Assembly: GCF_902859945.1 (NCBI RefSeq)
Contig: NZ_CADIKL010000003.1
Location: 124,001-188,000 of the forward strand
DNA length: 64,000 nucleotides
DNA from: Paraburkholderia caffeinitolerans
GTDB taxonomy: Bacteria > Pseudomonadota > Gammaproteobacteria > Burkholderiales > Burkholderiaceae
Direction: 5' to 3'
Shown here: in pieces, positions 2,647 through 61,434 of the stretch
How the letters are laid out: the number at the start of each line of letters is the position of its first letter
How positions within the stretch are numbered: the stretch's first letter is position 1
Program-made: the position numbers and the translations under genes
Notes under the pieces: generated by a model
Seen by the model: only the letters and a program-made list of their open reading frames with translations
Database searches by the model: none
Told to the model about the DNA's origin: nothing

Positions 2647-2910
2647 TGCTGGGGTGTCAGGAATATTTATCGGAGAAATCCTATTGAGGGGTATGGCCGG
2701 TCGATATCGGAGGCTTCTTAAAATGAGCGTCGCCGCTGCGCGCCATCTGCCGTCGGTGCAGCTTTGCTGCGCAGGTGCAAGCCATCGAGCACAATGAACG
2801 ACCGTGCTTTTCCTGATTCCGGTGAATGGACAGATTCACTAGAATCGGTTTGATCCCCCGCGTATTCCGTCATGCGGAACGGGGCCAGTAGATATCAAGG
2901 AGACGCAAGC

Positions 2911-3684
2911 ATGCAGGTCAGGGAAATGTTCGAATTGGGTGGACAGACGGCGCTTATCACGGGCGGCTCGCGCGGGCTCGGGCTGCAAATGGCCGAGGCG
3001 CTCGGCGAAATGGGCTGCCGTGTCGTCATTACGGCGCGCAAGGCCGACGAGCTTGCTGCGGCGGCGCAGCATCTGCAGGCGCGCGGCATCGAAGTCACGA
3101 CGATCGTGAGCGACCTGCAGCGTGCCGAGGCCGTCAAGCCTCTAGTCGATGAAACGCTGGCGGCATGCGGTCGGATCGACATTCTCGTGAACAATGCGGG
3201 CGCGACGTGGGGCGCGCCGGCGGAGGACTATCCCGATGAGGCATGGCACAAGGTCATGAACCTCAACGTCAACGCGCCGTTTTTCCTCGCTCGCGAAGTG
3301 GGCAAGCGCAGCATGATTCCCGCGCAGCGCGGCAAGATCATCAATATTGCGTCGGTCGCGGGCTTGAAGGGATCGCTTGGCCACATGCAGGCCATCGCAT
3401 ACAACACCTCGAAGGCCGCAGCCATCAACTTCACGCGCGCGCTCGCCGCCGAGTGGGGCAAGTACAACATCAACGTGAACGCGATCTGCCCGGGCTTCTT
3501 CCCGTCGAAGATGACGGCGGGCCTGCTCGATACGGCCGGGCAAGCGGTGATCGATCGTACGCCGCTGCATCGCCTCGGCGACGAAAGCGATCTTAAGGGC
3601 GCGGTGGTGTTTCTCGCGAGCGCCGCGTCGCGTCATGTCACCGGCCAGCACCTGGCGATCGACGGCGGCGCGAGCATCGCCTGA
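2911..3684 (+). CDS. SDR-family NAD(P)-dependent oxidoreductase
   Basis: 257 residues starting at ATG 2911 with AAGGAG upstream. It is a classical short-chain dehydrogenase: cofactor loop TGGSRGLG near residue 18, NNAG near 95, catalytic Ser in the IINIASVAG segment and YNTSK (Tyr-x-x-x-Lys) about residue 165. The C-terminal end HLAIDGGASIA is typical. SDRs of this size reduce or oxidise acyl or alcohol substrates. The next gene is an acyl-CoA ligase on the same strand 60 bp downstream, suggesting a short acyl catabolic operon. The substrate is unknown. Confidence 0.9.
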   Translation: MQVREMFELGGQTALITGGSRGLGLQMAEALGEMGCRVVITARKADELAAAAQHLQARGIEVTTIVSDLQRAEAVKPLVDETLAACGRIDILVNNAGATWGAPAEDYPDEAWHKVMNLNVNAPFFLAREVGKRSMIPAQRGKIINIASVAGLKGSLGHMQAIAYNTSKAAAINFTRALAAEWGKYNINVNAICPGFFPSKMTAGLLDTAGQAVIDRTPLHRLGDESDLKGAVVFLASAASRHVTGQHLAIDGGASIA

Positions 3685-31708: not shown

Positions 31709-32473
31709 TTAGAGTACGGATACGGCGCTGTTGTCGGCGTGGTCCTGGCGGACCCAATCGGCGAGCACGCTTTTATCGAAACGCCAGCCGATCGCGCCTG
31801 CGCCCACCGTCGCGCGCACATGGGTGATGAACGCCTTGCGCCCGATTTCGCGCCCGCCTAGTGAGGCCAGATGGGTGGTGTTCTGCTGGCAGTCGATTAG
31901 CTCGACGCCGTTGCGGCGTAGATGCGCGACGAGTGCGGCGAGTGCGATCTTCGAGGCGTCGGTGATGGACGCGAACATCGATTCGCCGAAAAACATCTTG
32001 CCGAGCGAGACGCCATAGAGGCCGCCCACGCGCTGGCCGTCGAGCCACGCTTCGATGCTGTGCGCGTCGCCAATGCGATGCAGGCTCGAATAGGCATCGA
32101 TCACATCGGAGGTGATCCAGGTGCCGCGCTGGCCACGTCGCGGCGCGTTCGCGCAGGCGCGCATCACGGCGGCGAAATCGTTGTCGACGCGGATTTCCCA
32201 GGCGGGGTCGCGCAGCACGCGCTTGAGCGTTTTCTTGAGCGAGGGCGAGACCTTGAACTCGTCGGGGCGCAGGATCATGCGTGGATCGGGGCTCCACCAG
32301 AGCACGGGCTGGCCGTCCGAATACCACGGGAAAATGCCGTGCCGATAGGCGTCGACGAGGCGCGAAGGCAACAGGTCGGCGCTTGCGGCAAGCAGTCCCG
32401 GCGCGCCGCTCGACGCGCCAAGGGCGCGCTCGACAGGCGGGAACGGGTCGTCGGGCGAAAGCCAGGGCACCAT
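31709..32473 (-). CDS. aat: Leucyl/phenylalanyl-tRNA-protein transferase
   Basis: 254 residues. Signature segments [20 protein letters not shown] and [17 protein letters not shown] are intact. It adds Leu or Phe to N-terminal Arg/Lys for ClpSAP degradation. It lies upstream of bpt on the same strand and 14 bp after a Nudix gene. Confidence 0.95.
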
Positions 32474-43225: not shown

Positions 43226-44251
43226 TTATTCAAATATTTCAGAAGAAAGCGCGGGCGACGCTTCCATAGGGCTGCGCAGGTGCGCGCGCGCCTCCTCGAA
43301 GATCGCGAGGTCGCCCTTGGCGAGCTTGCGATTGTCCGACAGCACGCGCCGCCATCCGCGCGCGCCGGCTTCGCCGCGGTACAGCCCCAGTGCGTGGCGC
43401 GTGATCGCGGCCAGATGTGTGCCACGCGCCATTTCGCTCGCGCAGTACTGCATCAGCTTGGCTTCGATGTCGTCGCGCGTAGGCGTGGGTTCGCTGGCGC
43501 CATAGAAGCGCGCATCGACACCGGCCAGCACGTAGGGGTTGTGGTAAGCCTCACGGCCGAGCATCACGCCGTCGACGTGCTCGAGGTGCAAAGCCACCTC
43601 GTCGAGCGTCTTGATGCCGCCGTTAATGATGATCTCGAGCTGCGGAAAATCGCGCTTGAGCTGCCAGGCGTATTCGTACTTGAGTGGCGGAATCTCGCGG
43701 TTTTCCTTCGGGCTCAATCCTTTGAGGATGGCGTTGCGCGCATGGACGATGAAAACCGTGCAGCCCGCATCCGCGACGGTGCCGACAAAATCTCGCACGA
43801 ACGCGTAGTCCTCGACCGCATCCACGCCGATGCGGTGCTTGACCGTCACCGGCACCGAGACCGCGTCGCGCATCGCCTTCACGCAGTCAGCCACAAGCTG
43901 CGGCTCGTTCATCAGGCACGCGCCGAATGCGCCGCGCTGGACGCGTTCGGACGGGCAGCCGCAGTTCAGGTTGATTTCGTCGTAGCCCCATTGCTCGCCG
44001 AGCTTGGCCGAGCGGGCGAGGTCGTCGGGCTCGCTGCCGCCCAGTTGCAGCGCGACGGGCGCTTCGTCGGGCGTGAACGCGAGATGGCGCGGCACGTCGC
44101 CGTGGAGCAGGGCGCCTGTCGTCACCATCTCGGTATACAGCCACGTGTGCCGTGAGATGAAGCGGTGCAGCGAGCGGCAGTGGCGGTCGGTCCAATCCAT
44201 CATCGGGGCAACGGCTACCTTTCGCGGCCTTGATTTTGCAGTGCTTTTCAT
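43226..44251 (-). CDS. dusA: tRNA-dihydrouridine(20/20a) synthase DusA; prophage integration locus
   Basis: 341 residues from ATG 44251 (an upstream start at 44299 would add 16 residues). The flavin-binding pattern VAVAPMMDWTDRHCRSLHRF opens the protein. NCGCPSERVQRGAFGACLM carries the catalytic cysteine. It reduces U20/U20a in the tRNA D-loop. The 5' end faces a phage integrase 110 bp away, and prophages with such integrases insert in the first codons of dusA while rebuilding them. The first codons here may therefore be phage-supplied. Confidence 0.93.
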   Translation of the reverse strand: MKSTAKSRPRKVAVAPMMDWTDRHCRSLHRFISRHTWLYTEMVTTGALLHGDVPRHLAFTPDEAPVALQLGGSEPDDLARSAKLGEQWGYDEINLNCGCPSERVQRGAFGACLMNEPQLVADCVKAMRDAVSVPVTVKHRIGVDAVEDYAFVRDFVGTVADAGCTVFIVHARNAILKGLSPKENREIPPLKYEYAWQLKRDFPQLEIIINGGIKTLDEVALHLEHVDGVMLGREAYHNPYVLAGVDARFYGASEPTPTRDDIEAKLMQYCASEMARGTHLAAITRHALGLYRGEAGARGWRRVLSDNRKLAKGDLAIFEEARAHLRSPMEASPALSSEIFE

Positions 44252-44304
44252 AAAAATCAATGAGTTAAGTATTTCGCCTTCGGTAGCGGTTCTTCCCAAT
44301 TACG

Positions 44305-44319
44305 CTACTTATTTGGTAG
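44305..44319. promoter_or_regulatory. Repressor-like operator near integrase start
   Basis: CTACTTATTTGGTAG, a diverged copy of the prophage palindrome CTACCGAAACGGTAG. It lies 45 bp upstream of the integrase ATG, where bound repressor could block transcription. Confidence 0.5.
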
Positions 44320-44363
44320 TATTTGCCCTGTTGGTGTTACTGAAATGTTACTCGGGGAACGGT

Positions 44364-45389
44364 ATGGCAACTTACATCAAGGTCGGCGAGCGTTGGCGCG
44401 CTCAAGTCAGAATTAAGGGGCATAAGCCCGTCGCTAGGACTTTCGATAAGAAAGCCCAGGCGGTCGCGTGGGCGACGAAAGCCGAGGATGAGATTCGAAG
44501 CGGCGGATTTGCTGACGCGCGCGCGTTGGCGGATTTTACCATTCCGAGCCTAGTCACCCGCTATGAGGAGGAGTTTGGGCCATTCAGGAAATCGAAGCGC
44601 GGCGCGCTCAAAATGCTACGCCGCCATATGAAGAACGATTCGCTCGCGTCGCTTGATGACGTTTCGATGATCGCCTACGCGAAGCGCCGCAACGCTATGG
44701 GCGCAGGCGGCGTCACGATCGGTCTGGAACTCAACTACCTGAGCGGGCTTCTGACGGTCGCGCGCACGGTCTGGAAAATCCCGTTTCGGGCTCAGCCGGT
44801 GCGCGAGGCGAGGCCCGCGCTGAAAATGCTCGGGCTGCTGTCGAAGTCAAAGGAGCGTGACCGGCGTCCGACGTCGGAGGAGATTGAGGCGCTCTGCCGC
44901 CATTTCGACGGCAAGGCGCGTCAGGTGATTCCGATGTCTGACATTATCCGGTTCGCGGTCGCGACGGCGATGCGCGCAAGCGAGATAACGTCGCTTCTGT
45001 GGGATGACCTCGACAGCGAAAACCGGACGATCGTCATCCGCGATAGAAAGCATCCTGAAGAGAAAATCGGGAACAATCAGACTGTCCCTCTTCTCGGCGA
45101 GGCGTTCGAAATCGCCAGTCGACAGCCGCGGCGTGGTCCGTTTGTCTTCCCTTACAACGCGCATAGCTTCTCATCGATCTTCCCGCGCGCCTGCGGCGAG
45201 TTGAAGATCGTCGACCTCCGGTTCCATGACCTTCGCCATGAAGGCGTCTCGCGGCTGTTTGAGCAGGGATACCGGATCGAGCAAGTCGCGCTAGTGAGCG
45301 GGCATCGAGACTGGAAGATGCTTCGTCGCTATACGCAAGTCCGCGCGCGAGACCTACATCGGGACTTCCCTGTGTCGACAGGCGAATAA
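44364..45389 (+). CDS. int: Tyrosine recombinase (phage integrase), dusA-type
   Basis: 341 residues from ATG 44364 (GGGGA upstream). It has a three-stranded N-terminal arm-binding start (MATYIKVGERWRAQVRIKGH) and a core-binding helical domain. The catalytic domain carries Arg in AVATAMRASEITSLLW, HDLRHEGVSR (His-x-x-Arg), LVSGHRDWKM (His) and the nucleophile Tyr in LRRYTQV. It is transcribed away from dusA, the usual layout of dusA-specific integrases. It should catalyse insertion and excision at dusA. Confidence 0.93.
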   Translation: MATYIKVGERWRAQVRIKGHKPVARTFDKKAQAVAWATKAEDEIRSGGFADARALADFTIPSLVTRYEEEFGPFRKSKRGALKMLRRHMKNDSLASLDDVSMIAYAKRRNAMGAGGVTIGLELNYLSGLLTVARTVWKIPFRAQPVREARPALKMLGLLSKSKERDRRPTSEEIEALCRHFDGKARQVIPMSDIIRFAVATAMRASEITSLLWDDLDSENRTIVIRDRKHPEEKIGNNQTVPLLGEAFEIASRQPRRGPFVFPYNAHSFSSIFPRACGELKIVDLRFHDLRHEGVSRLFEQGYRIEQVALVSGHRDWKMLRRYTQVRARDLHRDFPVSTGE

Positions 45390-45428: not shown

Positions 45429-45689
45429 TCATGCTGCGATTCCCATTCGCTTCCGTAGCGCGTCATGGGCCTGCCGGGCTAGCTCGCGCTGCGCATCTAG
45501 GTATTCGGCCACGTCGCGCGCATCAGCGAACCATCGCTTACCCTGTTTCCGCATCGGAATCGGGAACGCGCCCGCGCCGAGTTGGTTGTAGACGGTCTGG
45601 ACTTCGAGGCCGATCGTGTCGGCGACTTCCTCGATGTTCAGGACAAGGCGACCGTCGACGCGGCCCATAACCCAAAACAGAGCATTCAT
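45429..45689 (-). CDS. PrtN/AlpA-like helix-turn-helix protein
   Basis: 86 residues from ATG 45689 (GGAAG upstream). It opens MNALFWVMGRVDGRLVLNIE, like pyocin activator PrtN, and has an excisionase-like helix-turn-helix: VADTIGLEVQTVYNQLGAGA, then RKQGKRWFADARDVAEYLDA. It is the last gene of the leftward transcript, next to the integrase, so it is a candidate excisionase or activator. The two roles cannot be told apart from sequence. Confidence 0.7.
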   Translation of the reverse strand: MNALFWVMGRVDGRLVLNIEEVADTIGLEVQTVYNQLGAGAFPIPMRKQGKRWFADARDVAEYLDAQRELARQAHDALRKRMGIAA

Positions 45690-45770: not shown

Positions 45771-46895
45771 TTATGCGCCCCGATAGGTCTTCGTGAAATT
45801 CTGATCGACCGATTTCCCGCGCGATCGCACGACGTTCGCGAGCCGCGCGCGGTCATAGTGGCTGGCTGTCGCCTGTCCCAATAGGCCGAAATAGGAGTTC
45901 GCAACTGACATCAGATCATCGACCGGCGTTGCGATTACGCGGCGAAGCGCTTCGTTGCGCGTGCGCTTGCGCGTCACGCGATGCCACGGCTTGATAACTT
46001 GCCCTACAAAGTCCACGCCTCGGGCTACCGGCTGAAGAATGGTCTTGCGTGGATTGATCCGAACACCGAGGCGTTCTGGGAGGAACGCCGTCACGTCGGC
46101 GAGAATCTCAGTCAGGCGTTTTGGAGACTCGTGCAGGAACACGAAGTCATCGACGTACCGGATATAGTGCCGCGCTCCGAGGACGTGTTTCGCGCGCTTG
46201 TCGAGTACATCTAGATAGACGTTCGCGAAGAACTGGCTCGACAGGTTCCCGATCGGCAGCCCAAGATGGGCTGGCTGGTCGAGCAGGCGTTTATGCTGCG
46301 GAACGAGCTTCATCATCGCCGGATCGCCCCGGTAGACGAAGTCGACCCGTGGGTCGTGCATCAGCACGATCTCGGTCAGGGTGCGCCAGAATGGCTCGGT
46401 GACCTCCGCAAGCAGCAGATCGAGAAGAATGCGCTTATCGATGCTTACGAAGAAGTTCGCAAGATCGCACTTTAGGTAGTGCGCGGGACGCGACCAGTTC
46501 TGCGTGATCGAGCGAACCTTTGCTTCTAGGCGGCGTGCGGCATATAGCGTGCCGCGGCCCTCAATGCACGCGCATGAGTCGGCGATGAATGAGCGCTCGA
46601 AACGCGGTCCGATGTGGTTGTAAAGAAGATGGTGCACAATGCGATCGCGAAATTCTGCCGCCCATACCTCGCGTGGCTTCGGTCTCGTGATGACGAAACA
46701 CTTCGATCGTCCTGGCGCGTAAGCGCCAGAGGCTAACTCGTCGTAAAGACGGCGCAGATTGCGTTCGAGATTCAATTCGAACGCAATCGCGGCGCCGGTG
46801 TTGCGCTTCGTGCGACGGCAGTCGAGATACGCCTCGACAAGCTCGACGAACGAAAACTCGTTTCGATCTGCGGACGGCGCGGGCGCGCAACTCAT
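45771..46895 (-). CDS. DGR reverse transcriptase
   Basis: 374 residues from ATG 46895, which lies inside the template repeat. Reverse transcriptase motifs in order: HYLKCDLANFFVSID (motif A aspartate), LGLPIGNLSSQFFANVYLDV (motif B, with the GNxxSQ form of DGR enzymes), IRYVDDFVFL (catalytic YVDD) and GVRINPRKT. It copies TR RNA with adenine errors into cDNA that replaces VR. The frame is open upstream to 47105, where an ATG has GGAGG 11 bases before it and overlaps the avd stop. That would give a 444-residue form translated through TR, so the start is uncertain. Confidence 0.92.
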   Translation of the reverse strand: MSCAPAPSADRNEFSFVELVEAYLDCRRTKRNTGAAIAFELNLERNLRRLYDELASGAYAPGRSKCFVITRPKPREVWAAEFRDRIVHHLLYNHIGPRFERSFIADSCACIEGRGTLYAARRLEAKVRSITQNWSRPAHYLKCDLANFFVSIDKRILLDLLLAEVTEPFWRTLTEIVLMHDPRVDFVYRGDPAMMKLVPQHKRLLDQPAHLGLPIGNLSSQFFANVYLDVLDKRAKHVLGARHYIRYVDDFVFLHESPKRLTEILADVTAFLPERLGVRINPRKTILQPVARGVDFVGQVIKPWHRVTRKRTRNEALRRVIATPVDDLMSVANSYFGLLGQATASHYDRARLANVVRSRGKSVDQNFTKTYRGA

Positions 46896-46956
46896 TGTTG
46901 TGGTTGTTGTAGTTCTGGTTGCCATTGTTGAAGTTCTGATACCAAGCCCAGCCGGA
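46868..46956 (-). repeat. DGR template repeat (TR)
   Basis: 89 bp. On the coding (minus) strand it holds many AAC/AAT codons in the frame of the targets. It matches VR1 and VR2 except at template adenines. The GC-rich last 27 bases (46868-46894) are identical in all three copies and correspond to the IMH-like end. The TR lies between avd and the reverse transcriptase. Confidence 0.95.
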
Positions 46957-47097
46957 AATATCGTGCTATCTACGTCGCCCGGTCGATTTCTCAAGCGGGA
47001 AACTGCGCTGGACCTATCTGCACGCTGGCAGTCGGTTTCCTCGATGCGCATGGCGGTGGCCTTGTGAGCCAGCGGCACGACCAGATTGAAAGATCGC

Positions 47098-47475
47098 TCA
47101 GCCATGAAAGCCTTGACCTCCACGGAGCGGGCGATTGTCTGCGGAACGCTTCCACCCGTTGGCCTGCTTCCCAATGCTCGTCGTCTGCTCGATCGCGCCA
47201 GCGTATGCCTGTCGCGCGATCAAGCGCTTGTCCATGCCGAGCCTAAGCAGAAGCTCAATCACCTGAAGGCGTTCGAGCAACTCGGAAAGGTGCGCCGACT
47301 TTTCGGATGCGACGTTCGCGCGAAACACGAGGACCATAATCTCGATGCATTCTGCGCTGATCTTTTCGCCAATGCTGCGCTTGAAGTCGCGAGGCATGTT
47401 TTTGACCAAGTCGGTTACGACGTCGAGCAGGCTGTATGCCGCTCGATAAATTGGCAATTGGGTATGCAGTGCCAC
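47098..47475 (-). CDS. avd: DGR accessory variability determinant (Avd-like)
   Basis: About 125 residues from GTG 47475. The start is uncertain, as no strong Shine-Dalgarno is seen. Helical protein with four amphipathic helices (AYSLLDVVTDLVKNMPRDF; EKISAECIEIMVLVFRAN; HLSELLERLQVIELLLRLGM; QAYAGAIEQTTSIGKQANGW) and basic surface residues, matching the four-helix-bundle Avd family. In the Bordetella system Avd is a ring-forming, RNA-binding partner of the reverse transcriptase and is needed for retrohoming. It lies 14 bp after the target 1 stop and before TR, the usual order. Confidence 0.88.
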   Translation of the reverse strand: MALHTQLPIYRAAYSLLDVVTDLVKNMPRDFKRSIGEKISAECIEIMVLVFRANVASEKSAHLSELLERLQVIELLLRLGMDKRLIARQAYAGAIEQTTSIGKQANGWKRSADNRPLRGGQGFHG

Positions 47476-47489
47476 GGGGGTCTAAATAA

Positions 47490-47954
47490 TCAAATTACTG
47501 AAGGGATAAACCTGCGGACGGCGCGGGCGCGCAACTCATTGCGGTGGTTGCTGTAGTACTGGTAGCCATTGCCGAAGTACTGATACCAAGCCCAGCCGGA
47601 GTTGGTCTCGTGACGCTCTCCAGACCAGTAATAAGCGGCCTCGAACTCGCCCTTCAGGTTGGCGAATAACAGTGATTGCTCGCTGCGTGTCGGCAGTTCG
47701 CCACCTTGCTCAATGGCCCATTCGCAAGCGCGCCCCCACTGTGCATCCTCGATCTCGCCCGAGATCAGGATCAAGTGATAGTCCGGCTCGCCGTTCTGGC
47801 CGAGTACCAGACCTGCGTAGCGCTCGCCCGGCGCGAGCGGGATTTTCACGCCAGCGACGATGTATTCCGTCGCCTTCGGCTGCTTTTTGAACTCCTCGAT
47901 CAGTGCGCTGATGCGCGCGTGATCGGCTTCGATCTGTTCGAGCGTGATCGTCAT
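47490..47954 (-). CDS. DGR target protein 1 (DUF1566-like, variable C-terminus)
   Basis: 154 residues from ATG 47954, preceded by GGAG. Residues 1-30 are a helical coil (MTITLEQIEADHARISALIE). The rest is one module with GELPTRSEQSLLFANLKGEF and YYWSGE, close to the DUF1566/C-type-lectin-like fold used by other DGR targets. The last 29 or so residues lie in VR1 (SGWAWYQYFGNGYQYYSNHR region), so the binding face would be diversified. It has no signal peptide or membrane segment. It is paralogous to target 2. Confidence 0.88.
   Translation of the reverse strand: MTITLEQIEADHARISALIEEFKKQPKATEYIVAGVKIPLAPGERYAGLVLGQNGEPDYHLILISGEIEDAQWGRACEWAIEQGGELPTRSEQSLLFANLKGEFEAAYYWSGERHETNSGWAWYQYFGNGYQYYSNHRNELRARAVRRFIPSVI
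47512..47600 (-). repeat. DGR variable repeat 1 (VR1)
   Basis: 89 bp at the 3' end of target 1. Aligned to TR without gaps it differs at 8 positions, all template adenines on the coding strand. They give AAC to TAC (three times), GGC, AGC and CGC. The final GC-rich 27 bases are identical to TR. Confidence 0.96.
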
Positions 47955-47984
47955 TGCGATTCTCCGTTGAAAATGGACAAAGAG

Positions 47985-48338
47985 TTAAATCGACAACCTG
48001 CGGACGGCGCGGGCGCGCAACTCAATGCCGTGGTCGATGTAGTCCTGGCCGCCACTGGTGAAGTGCTGACACCAAGCCCAGCCGTCTTCGTCGTTCTGGT
48101 TACTCCAATACCAATCCATCTTGAACTGGTCGCGGTGATTCGCCCACAGCATGGCCTGCTCGACACGTGTCGGGAGGTCGCCGCCGATGCTTTTGGCCCA
48201 GTCCATCTGCGATTGCCAGCTAGCGTCGTCGTTGTCACCCGGAAGCAGGATGACGTGATGGAGGTCGCCGTTCTTGTCGCCGATCACGCCGACATAGACC
48301 TCGCCTTCGGCAAGTGCCGGTATTTGAACTCGTTGCAT
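47985..48338 (-). CDS. DGR target protein 2 (DUF1566-like, variable C-terminus)
   Basis: 117 residues from ATG 48338 with a strong AAGGAG. It lacks the N-terminal coil of target 1 but has the same module: YVGVIGDKNGDLHHVILLPG, GGDLPTRVEQAMLWANHRDQ and WYWSNQNDEDGWAWCQHF. It ends ELRARAVRRLSI. The C-terminus falls in VR2. It is upstream of target 1 with 30 bp between, so both are likely co-transcribed. The partner or ligand is unknown. Confidence 0.88.
   Translation of the reverse strand: MQRVQIPALAEGEVYVGVIGDKNGDLHHVILLPGDNDDASWQSQMDWAKSIGGDLPTRVEQAMLWANHRDQFKMDWYWSNQNDEDGWAWCQHFTSGGQDYIDHGIELRARAVRRLSI
47998..48084 (-). repeat. DGR variable repeat 2 (VR2)
   Basis: 87 bp at the 3' end of target 2. 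It differs from TR at 12 positions, all template adenines on the coding strand, giving among others TAT to TGT and AAC to CAC, ACC, GGC, GAC and ATC. The GC-rich end is identical to TR. Confidence 0.96.
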
Positions 48339-61359: not shown

Positions 61360-61434
61360 GCGGGCTTAGTTCAGTGGAAGAACGACAGCCTTCCAAGCTG
61401 TATGTCATCGGTTCGATCCCGATAGCCCGCTCCA
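61360..61434 (+). tRNA. tRNA-Gly (TCC), phage-encoded
   Basis: Acceptor GCGGGCT/AGCCCGC, D-arm TAGTTCAGTGG, anticodon loop CTTCCAA (TCC), T-arm ATCGGTTCGATCCCGAT, and CCA encoded. It lies inside the prophage, well away from the attachment site. Confidence 0.93.

What the first reader, a model, noticed from the sequence alone, without database searches (positions are those of the whole stretch)
45771..48338. Complete diversity-generating retroelement with two target genes in a prophage
The sequence shows a reverse transcriptase (IRYVDDFVFL, LGLPIGNLSSQ), an Avd-like helical protein, one 89-bp template repeat (46868-46956) and two variable repeats (47512-47600 and 47998-48084) at the 3' ends of two paralogous genes. 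The order (target 2, target 1, avd, TR, RT, all leftward) is a canonical DGR. The system class is known from Bordetella phage BPP-1. What is less usual is two small targets and their place next to the integrase.
Basis: partly seen in the sequence, partly recalled or inferred. Interest (0 to 1): 0.95.

Follow-up and report, generated by a model that had tools for sequence, protein, structure and literature searches.

The report
Mutation machine with back-to-front RNA
This prophage carries a gene-rewriting cassette (one template and two small target genes that differ from it almost only at the template's A's), and in its branch the template is likely read as part of the copying enzyme's own gene, behind a structured RNA whose role had not been named.

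Summary
In detail: a complete diversity-generating retroelement (DGR) lies at 45771-48338, and all 20 differences inside the two variable repeats fall on template adenines. It is not canonical. (1) Rfam's RT-15 RNA (E 2.9e-41; named, no role given) lies directly upstream of the template repeat (TR); in BPP-1 the structured RNA lies downstream, in a 144-nt spacer. RT-15-type DGRs have almost no spacer there (median 12 nt, 80 loci; 134-341 nt in six other groups; one group of 4 loci 35-84). (2) In the window's clade the RT frame likely starts before the TR and runs through it: 31 of 97 in-frame relatives have no start codon in TR or linker, and 19 linker length changes never break frame. (3) The GC-rich hairpin that BPP-1 needs behind its VR was not found (0 of 161 VR flanks of close relatives). 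Two or more small targets is the rule (149 of 162 loci), not the exception. A second DGR with three targets lies in the same genome. Two relatives with identical RT DNA differ at 10 VR sites, all template adenines, so the family is active. A phylogenetically paired test of point 2 was underpowered. New variant of a known kind; nothing tested at the bench.

The parts
45771..47105 (-). Reverse transcriptase, likely reading frame from ATG 47105-47103 (overlaps the avd stop codon; GGAGG 47121-47117 and AAGG 47114-47111 upstream) or ATG 47051-47049; conserved RT domain from about 46865. ATGs inside the TR at 46925-46923 and 46895-46893 are rival starts.
   Evidence: start site inferred
46868..46956 (-). 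Template repeat (TR), 89 nt, 25 adenines; inside the RT frame
46954..47136 (-). RT-15 RNA (Rfam RF03018), ends at the TR's 5' edge and covers the avd 3' end
   Evidence: 166.6 bits, gathering 82
47098..47475 (-). Avd (accessory variability determinant), 125 aa, GTG start
47490..47954 (-). Target 1 (T1), 154 aa, lectin-like, no signal peptide seen by eye
47512..47600 (-). VR1: 8 differences from TR, 8 at A
47985..48338 (-). Target 2 (T2), 117 aa, paralogue of T1
47998..48084 (-). VR2: 12 differences from TR, 12 at A
44004..45389 (+). Tyrosine integrase ORF (domain from about residue 290; true start probably downstream of 44004)
45429..45689 (-). HTH_17, excisionase-like

Best explanation
This is a DGR in a prophage whose single template repeat would be copied, with errors opposite adenines, into two small lectin-like target genes by a reverse transcriptase whose reading frame likely begins upstream of the template and runs through it. 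The likely order on the transcript is T2, T1, avd, RT-15 RNA, TR, RT domain. RT-15 is predicted to be the 5' part of the template RNA: it would recruit the RT-Avd complex and end cDNA synthesis at the 5' edge of the TR. cDNA would start near the GC-rich 3' end of the TR (GCGCGCCCGCGCCGTCCGCAG), which TR and VRs share, without the 3' spacer that primes synthesis in BPP-1; what primes it here is unknown. The cDNA would then replace the VR of T1 or T2. Because the same stretch of RNA would serve as RT message and as template, translation and templating would compete, a possible brake on the system (inference). Shown: the parts, adenine-only differences, RT-15 and its place, the missing 3' spacer, frame conservation, recent VR change in relatives. 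Inferred: start site, RNA roles, priming, homing, what the targets bind.
For: Adenine specificity: window 20 of 20; 138 family VRs with a clear core: A changed 1651 of 3486, C 50 of 4039, G 78 of 3150, T 48 of 1379. Activity in the family: L033 and L030 share 900 identical nt of RT and 300 identical nt before VR1, yet VR1 differs at 10 sites, all TR adenines. RT-15: window, second DGR, Magia, QDWS, Cruim01, Haboob; all 9 over-cut-off hits in 98 genomes have an RT homologue just downstream (in one, L176, the RT is in two pieces). Other DGRs carry their Rfam RNA 3' of the TR: BPP-1 Phage_DGR, BalMu-1 RT-14 and Mushu RT-9 (with TR distances). TR-to-RT gap: RT-15 type -3 to 70 nt, median 12 (80 loci); BPP-1 type 144-191 (48), VP58.5 139-226 (32), BalMu 134-240 (28), Wae 147-202 (12), Lagaffe 302-341 (9), Mushu 223 (1). 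Frame: of 75 relatives at 70% or more RT identity the TR-RT linker changed length 19 times on the tree and never out of frame; the RT-15 part changed 5 times, once out of frame, against 15 and 12 in the Pseudomonas-type clade. 31 of 97 in-frame-open loci, the genome's second DGR among them, have no ATG, GTG or TTG from -150 to +30; 48 loci without a near ATG all have the open frame, 36 closed loci all have a near ATG. Synonymous variation is 0.07-0.40 of expectation over RT-15 and TR but 0.66-0.83 in the first 60 RT codons, so no conserved RNA is hidden 3' of the TR (79 loci).
Against: The paired test that allows for kinship had only about 1.3 informative pairs on starred branches and does not reach significance. 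The RT-15 sequence itself holds stops in the other two frames, so the stop counts (RT frame 1 of 77 loci, others 72 and 76) are not independent evidence. An open frame through the TR also occurs in 27 of 48 BPP-1-type and 19 of 32 VP58.5-type loci that have a spacer. The window itself has two ATGs inside the TR. In the Pseudomonas-type clade the frame is closed in 29 of 36, so reading through is not needed for function. AlphaFold leaves residues 5-75 of the extension under pLDDT 50. L018, L112 and L173 break the frame rule. Group F2 (4 loci) also has a short gap, 35-84 nt, and its one scanned member showed no Rfam RNA, so a short gap is not unique to RT-15 DGRs. No homing, cDNA or protein was measured.
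Confidence: 0.7

Rival explanations
1. An ordinary DGR whose RT starts inside the TR (ATG 46925 or 46895); RT-15 is a separate regulatory or binding RNA and the open frame upstream is a by-product of RNA conservation.
For: The window has these ATGs; all 36 closed-frame relatives have an in-frame ATG near the RT start; RT-15 sequence alone closes the other two frames; BLAST aligns brt only from our residue 5.
Against: The second DGR of the same genome and 30 other loci have no start codon there; frame is kept through linker and, mostly, RT-15 length changes in the window's clade but not through RT-15 in the Pseudomonas-type clade; good ribosome-binding sites precede the upstream ATGs (by eye).
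Confidence: 0.25
2. The window's DGR is a fossil: its VRs were diversified long ago and the element no longer works in this lysogen.
For: The only identical copy found, L015, has identical VRs; VR2 has two non-A mismatches at its edge; no hairpin follows either VR.
Against: RT, Avd and both targets are open; 20 of 20 interior changes are at A, whereas decay would add other changes; relatives changed recently.
Confidence: 0.12
3. On the targets' role: T1 and T2 are small adhesins that join the virion, as Mtd does, rather than proteins of the early or lysogenic phase.
For: The model of T1 best resembles Lcl C-terminal domain and C-type lectins; Magia's authors suggest host-range change; BPP-1 precedent.
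Against: In the window, Magia and QDWS the DGR lies among early or integration genes away from the tail module; Magia's third target lies next to the repressor region; no virion data.
Confidence: 0.45

Closest known systems
BPP-1 DGR (Bordetella phage, NC_005357)
   Same: avd-TR-RT order on one strand, adenine-only VR change, GC-rich 3' end of TR and VR, DGR-type RT (32% identity over 306 columns)
   Different: BPP-1's TR abuts avd and is followed by a 144-nt spacer with Phage_DGR RNA; here RT-15 precedes the TR and the RT domain follows at once. BPP-1 has one annotated VR in mtd and a required hairpin (passages of PMC3240598); here two small targets and no hairpin. Avd proteins show no BLASTP similarity. 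YVDD here, YMDD in brt.
Burkholderia phage Magia DGR (NC_070954)
   Same: Same cassette, RT-15, two cassette targets; RT 84% identical
   Different: Magia has a third, distant target (gene 57). Its paper names genes 47 and 57 as targets (text read); a VR also lies in gene 46.
DiGReF structural group 3
   Same: [quoted passage not shown] multi-VR DGRs listed, two Burkholderia among them (passages, PMC3521204)
   Different: There an annotation class; here frame conservation is tested and the 5' RNA identified.
Rfam RT-15, RT-14, RT-9, Phage_DGR RNAs
   Same: Structured RNAs beside DGR RTs
   Different: Of the four seen here only RT-15 lies 5' of the TR.

Membership tests
DGR | RT of DGR type | tested here: met
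   GxxxSQ and YVDD motifs (motif meaning from PMC3521204 passages); phrog_1423; brt 32%. No tree against non-DGR RTs was built.
DGR | TR and VR differing at TR adenines | tested here: met
   20 of 20; family 138 VRs
DGR | Avd-like accessory protein | tested here: met
   Pfam bAvd over cut-off, phrog_3206; under the NCBIfam cut-off
DGR | Target with C-type-lectin-like VR domain | tested here: inconclusive
   Lcl_C under Pfam cut-off; Foldseek best 8q4e Lcl domain, probability 1.00, E 0.025, no match at E 0.001 or better; VR part of the model pLDDT 50-55
DGR | Mutagenic retrohoming in this phage | not testable with these tools
   Only relatives show recent VR change
BPP-1-type DGR | Structured spacer RNA between TR and RT | tested here: not met
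   No Phage_DGR hit at E 1; gap near zero; no synonymous suppression 3' of the TR
BPP-1-type DGR | GC-rich hairpin downstream of VR | tested here: not met
   None at VR1 or VR2 with stem 6 or more; 0 of 161 flanks at stem 7 (7 at stem 6) in close relatives, 37 of 141 in distant ones
Rfam RT-15 | Covariance-model score over the gathering cut-off | tested here: met
   166.6 against 82 bits

The most novel reading that the evidence does not exclude
RT-15 DGRs are a mirror-image DGR lineage: the template RNA's structured domain has moved from the 3' to the 5' side of the template, the 3' spacer that primes cDNA in BPP-1 is gone, and the template has been absorbed into the RT gene as a dual-coding segment (asparagine-rich in the targets' frame, threonine-rich in the RT's). 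Priming and target recognition must then work differently from BPP-1, with translation of the RT and use of its message as template excluding each other.
Probability: 0.45. Interest if true: 0.75.

Novelty: new variant of a known kind. Interest (0 to 1): 0.6.

Why it matters
How DGR cDNA synthesis starts and how the target is recognised is known almost only from BPP-1, where a 3' spacer RNA and a target hairpin are needed. A widespread lineage without either, with a conserved RNA on the other side, is a natural experiment on which parts of the mechanism are essential. It also gives Rfam's RT-15 (and, by position, RT-14 and RT-9) a testable role. The family includes cultured phages (Magia, QDWS, Cruim01, Haboob), so it can be studied directly.

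Tried and rejected
Sparing of TR adenines followed by G: a first count gave 14 of 1218 changed, against 46-64% for other adenines, and seemed to hold at synonymous third positions. With the frame set properly and only VR interiors counted, third-position AG sites were 6 and four-fold sites none; CAG 3 of 567 and AAG 4 of 130 were spared, but GAG 4 of 15 and AGC 2 of 12 were not. Selection on conserved Gln/Lys explains it as well, so I dropped the mechanistic claim and the third-position argument. Other groups: BPP-1 type 13 of 24, VP58.5 8 of 35, BalMu 7 of 22.

Cross-talk between the genome's two DGRs: the TRs differ at 6 sites and each VR carries its own TR's letters (in VR1_B one of the six is an A of TR_B, mutated to G); no cross-copying seen, which separate histories would also explain.

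Attachment repeats near the integrase: none convincing; right end of the prophage not placed. A pairing of UCUGGU in RT-15 with ACCAGA in the TR was proposed by RNAalifold but hardly varies, so it is unproven. PDB sequence hits of Avd (DARPins) and T1 (antibodies) looked like chance matches.

Full report
What is there. The stretch 45771-48338 holds, read leftward, T2, T1, avd, TR and RT. RT and Avd match the expected families; in PADLOC the RT matches many defence RT profiles, as any RT would, with a generic RT profile best. The rightmost-lying neighbours are phage early genes: Ref-like nuclease, NinB, Gam, ParB-like, SSB, Erf, a replication initiator; a minor tail gene begins at 61374. The integrase lies at 44004-45389.

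Second copy. The same genome (8.05 Mb, 138 contigs) carries another DGR at C6: TR 103558-103646 and three VRs. Of the 14 matches to the TR at E 1 or better, seven are TRs or VRs; the other seven are short and weak. VR1_B 14 of 14, VR2_B 11 of 11 and VR3_B 9 of 10 differences are at A. Its integrase is 2.9 kb from the RT. TR_B has lost both in-TR ATGs.

Relatives. I took the best 80 of 516 viral and 80 of 129 genomic relatives of the RT, plus Magia, QDWS, Cruim01 and Haboob. Of 162 loci with enough upstream sequence, 5 show no VR by my finder, 8 one, 110 two, 37 three, 2 four; short contigs lower the low counts. Of 347 VRs, 341 were placed in an ORF; median target length 158 aa (some starts are over-long by my rule, so this is rough). 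The set is redundant: several phages occur in both collections (pairs).

Activity. Among near-identical pairs most have identical VRs, probably the same strain twice. L033 and L030 are the exception: RT identical over 900 nt, T1 identical for 300 nt before the VR, VR1 different at 10 sites, all TR adenines. L060/L061 differ at 2 sites in VR2, one at A and one at G.

RT-15. Rfam RF03018 matches 46954-47136, its 3' end at the TR; also in DGR B, Magia, QDWS, Cruim01 and Haboob, and Cruim01's own record annotates it. In 98 genomes (own plus relatives) 8 have hits over the cut-off, 9 hits in all, each just upstream of an RT homologue; 3 hits under the cut-off have none. An alignment of the window and 54 of the 81 diverse loci gives 55 consensus pairs, 26 of them with two-sided changes in at least one sequence. 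Searches for RT-15 with DGRs found no paper that links them (open-licence library only); the paper I recall as the source of the RT-n motifs was not held.

Which side. BPP-1: TR 2887-3020 abuts avd at 3021 and lies 144 nt from brt; Phage_DGR RNA fills 2750-2882. In BalMu-1 RT-14 and in Mushu RT-9 lie between TR and RT. Across groups named by best-matching query, 130 loci of six groups have TR-RT gaps of 134-341 nt; RT-15 type (80 loci in which this stricter finder placed the TR) -3 to 70; F2 (4 loci) 35-84. A 2026 study says the BPP-1 spacer recruits RT-Avd and primes cDNA, and that avd's 3' end stops it (PMC12875486: passages and section 7).

Reading through the TR. From the RT domain the frame is open for 357 nt upstream in the window and 396 in DGR B. 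144 distinct loci: 108 open from an RT-15 anchor to the RT; of these, 97 have an anchor distance divisible by 3, in 15 different lengths, 8 do not and 3 had no anchor; of 36 closed, 31 are not divisible. Defining the clade by RT identity alone (70% or more), 21 length changes and 2 frame changes; Pseudomonas-type clade 15 and 12. By segment: linker 19 and 0 (Pseudomonas type 4 and 0: coding in both); RT-15 part 5 and 1 against 15 and 12; TR 5 and 1 against 0 and 0. TR indels are also tied to the targets' frame, so I rest on linker and RT-15. Trees are FastTree only. The kinship-aware pair test was underpowered. Rare start codons beyond ATG, GTG and TTG were not counted.

Missing hairpin. PMC3240598 (passages) shows a GC-rich hairpin behind VR is needed in BPP-1 and proposes it as general. 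Mine: none at stem 6 or more behind VR1 or VR2. Close relatives 0 of 161 at stem 7, 7 of 161 at stem 6; distant relatives 37 of 141 and 64 of 141. My scan is imperfect: it finds 9 of 38 in BPP-1-type flanks and 14 of 22 in VP58.5 type.

Targets. T1 has a helical N-terminus, then a lectin-like domain; best structural match is Legionella Lcl C-terminal domain, with C-type lectins filling most of the list, none at E 0.001. Role unknown; virion adhesin or early-phase binder are both open.

Verdict. A real DGR, of a widespread but little described lineage, with a reversed RNA layout. Known kind, new variant.

Noticed in passing
G000 contig C6 103558-105158 (L009 10558-12158): A second DGR in the same genome with three small targets; its TR differs from the window's at 6 sites that mark its own VRs.
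   Followed up: yes
L255:4798-4941 and L260:4540-4639: Rfam RT-14 and RT-9 RNAs lie between TR and RT in BalMu-1 and Mushu DGRs, where BPP-1 has Phage_DGR.
   Followed up: partly
TRs of RT-15-type loci: CAG and AAG adenines inside the VR are almost never changed (3 of 567, 4 of 130) while neighbouring AAC adenines mostly are; context effect and selection not separated.
   Followed up: partly
OP650936.1 and OK094664.1: A 'Hujiaoplasma' phage record has the same length (47,902) and near-identical DGR match as Shewanella phage QDWS; possible mislabelled host.
   Followed up: no
L011:32316-32780 (Magia gene 46): Holds a VR (32336-32425) but is annotated hypothetical; the Magia paper names only genes 47 and 57 as targets.
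   Followed up: yes
L176: RT-15 locus whose RT matches in two pieces with about 90 residues missing between them: possibly a broken DGR.
   Followed up: no
window 43226-44299: ORF beside the integrase looks like a tRNA-dihydrouridine synthase (recalled resemblance, not tested), a possible integration site.
   Followed up: no
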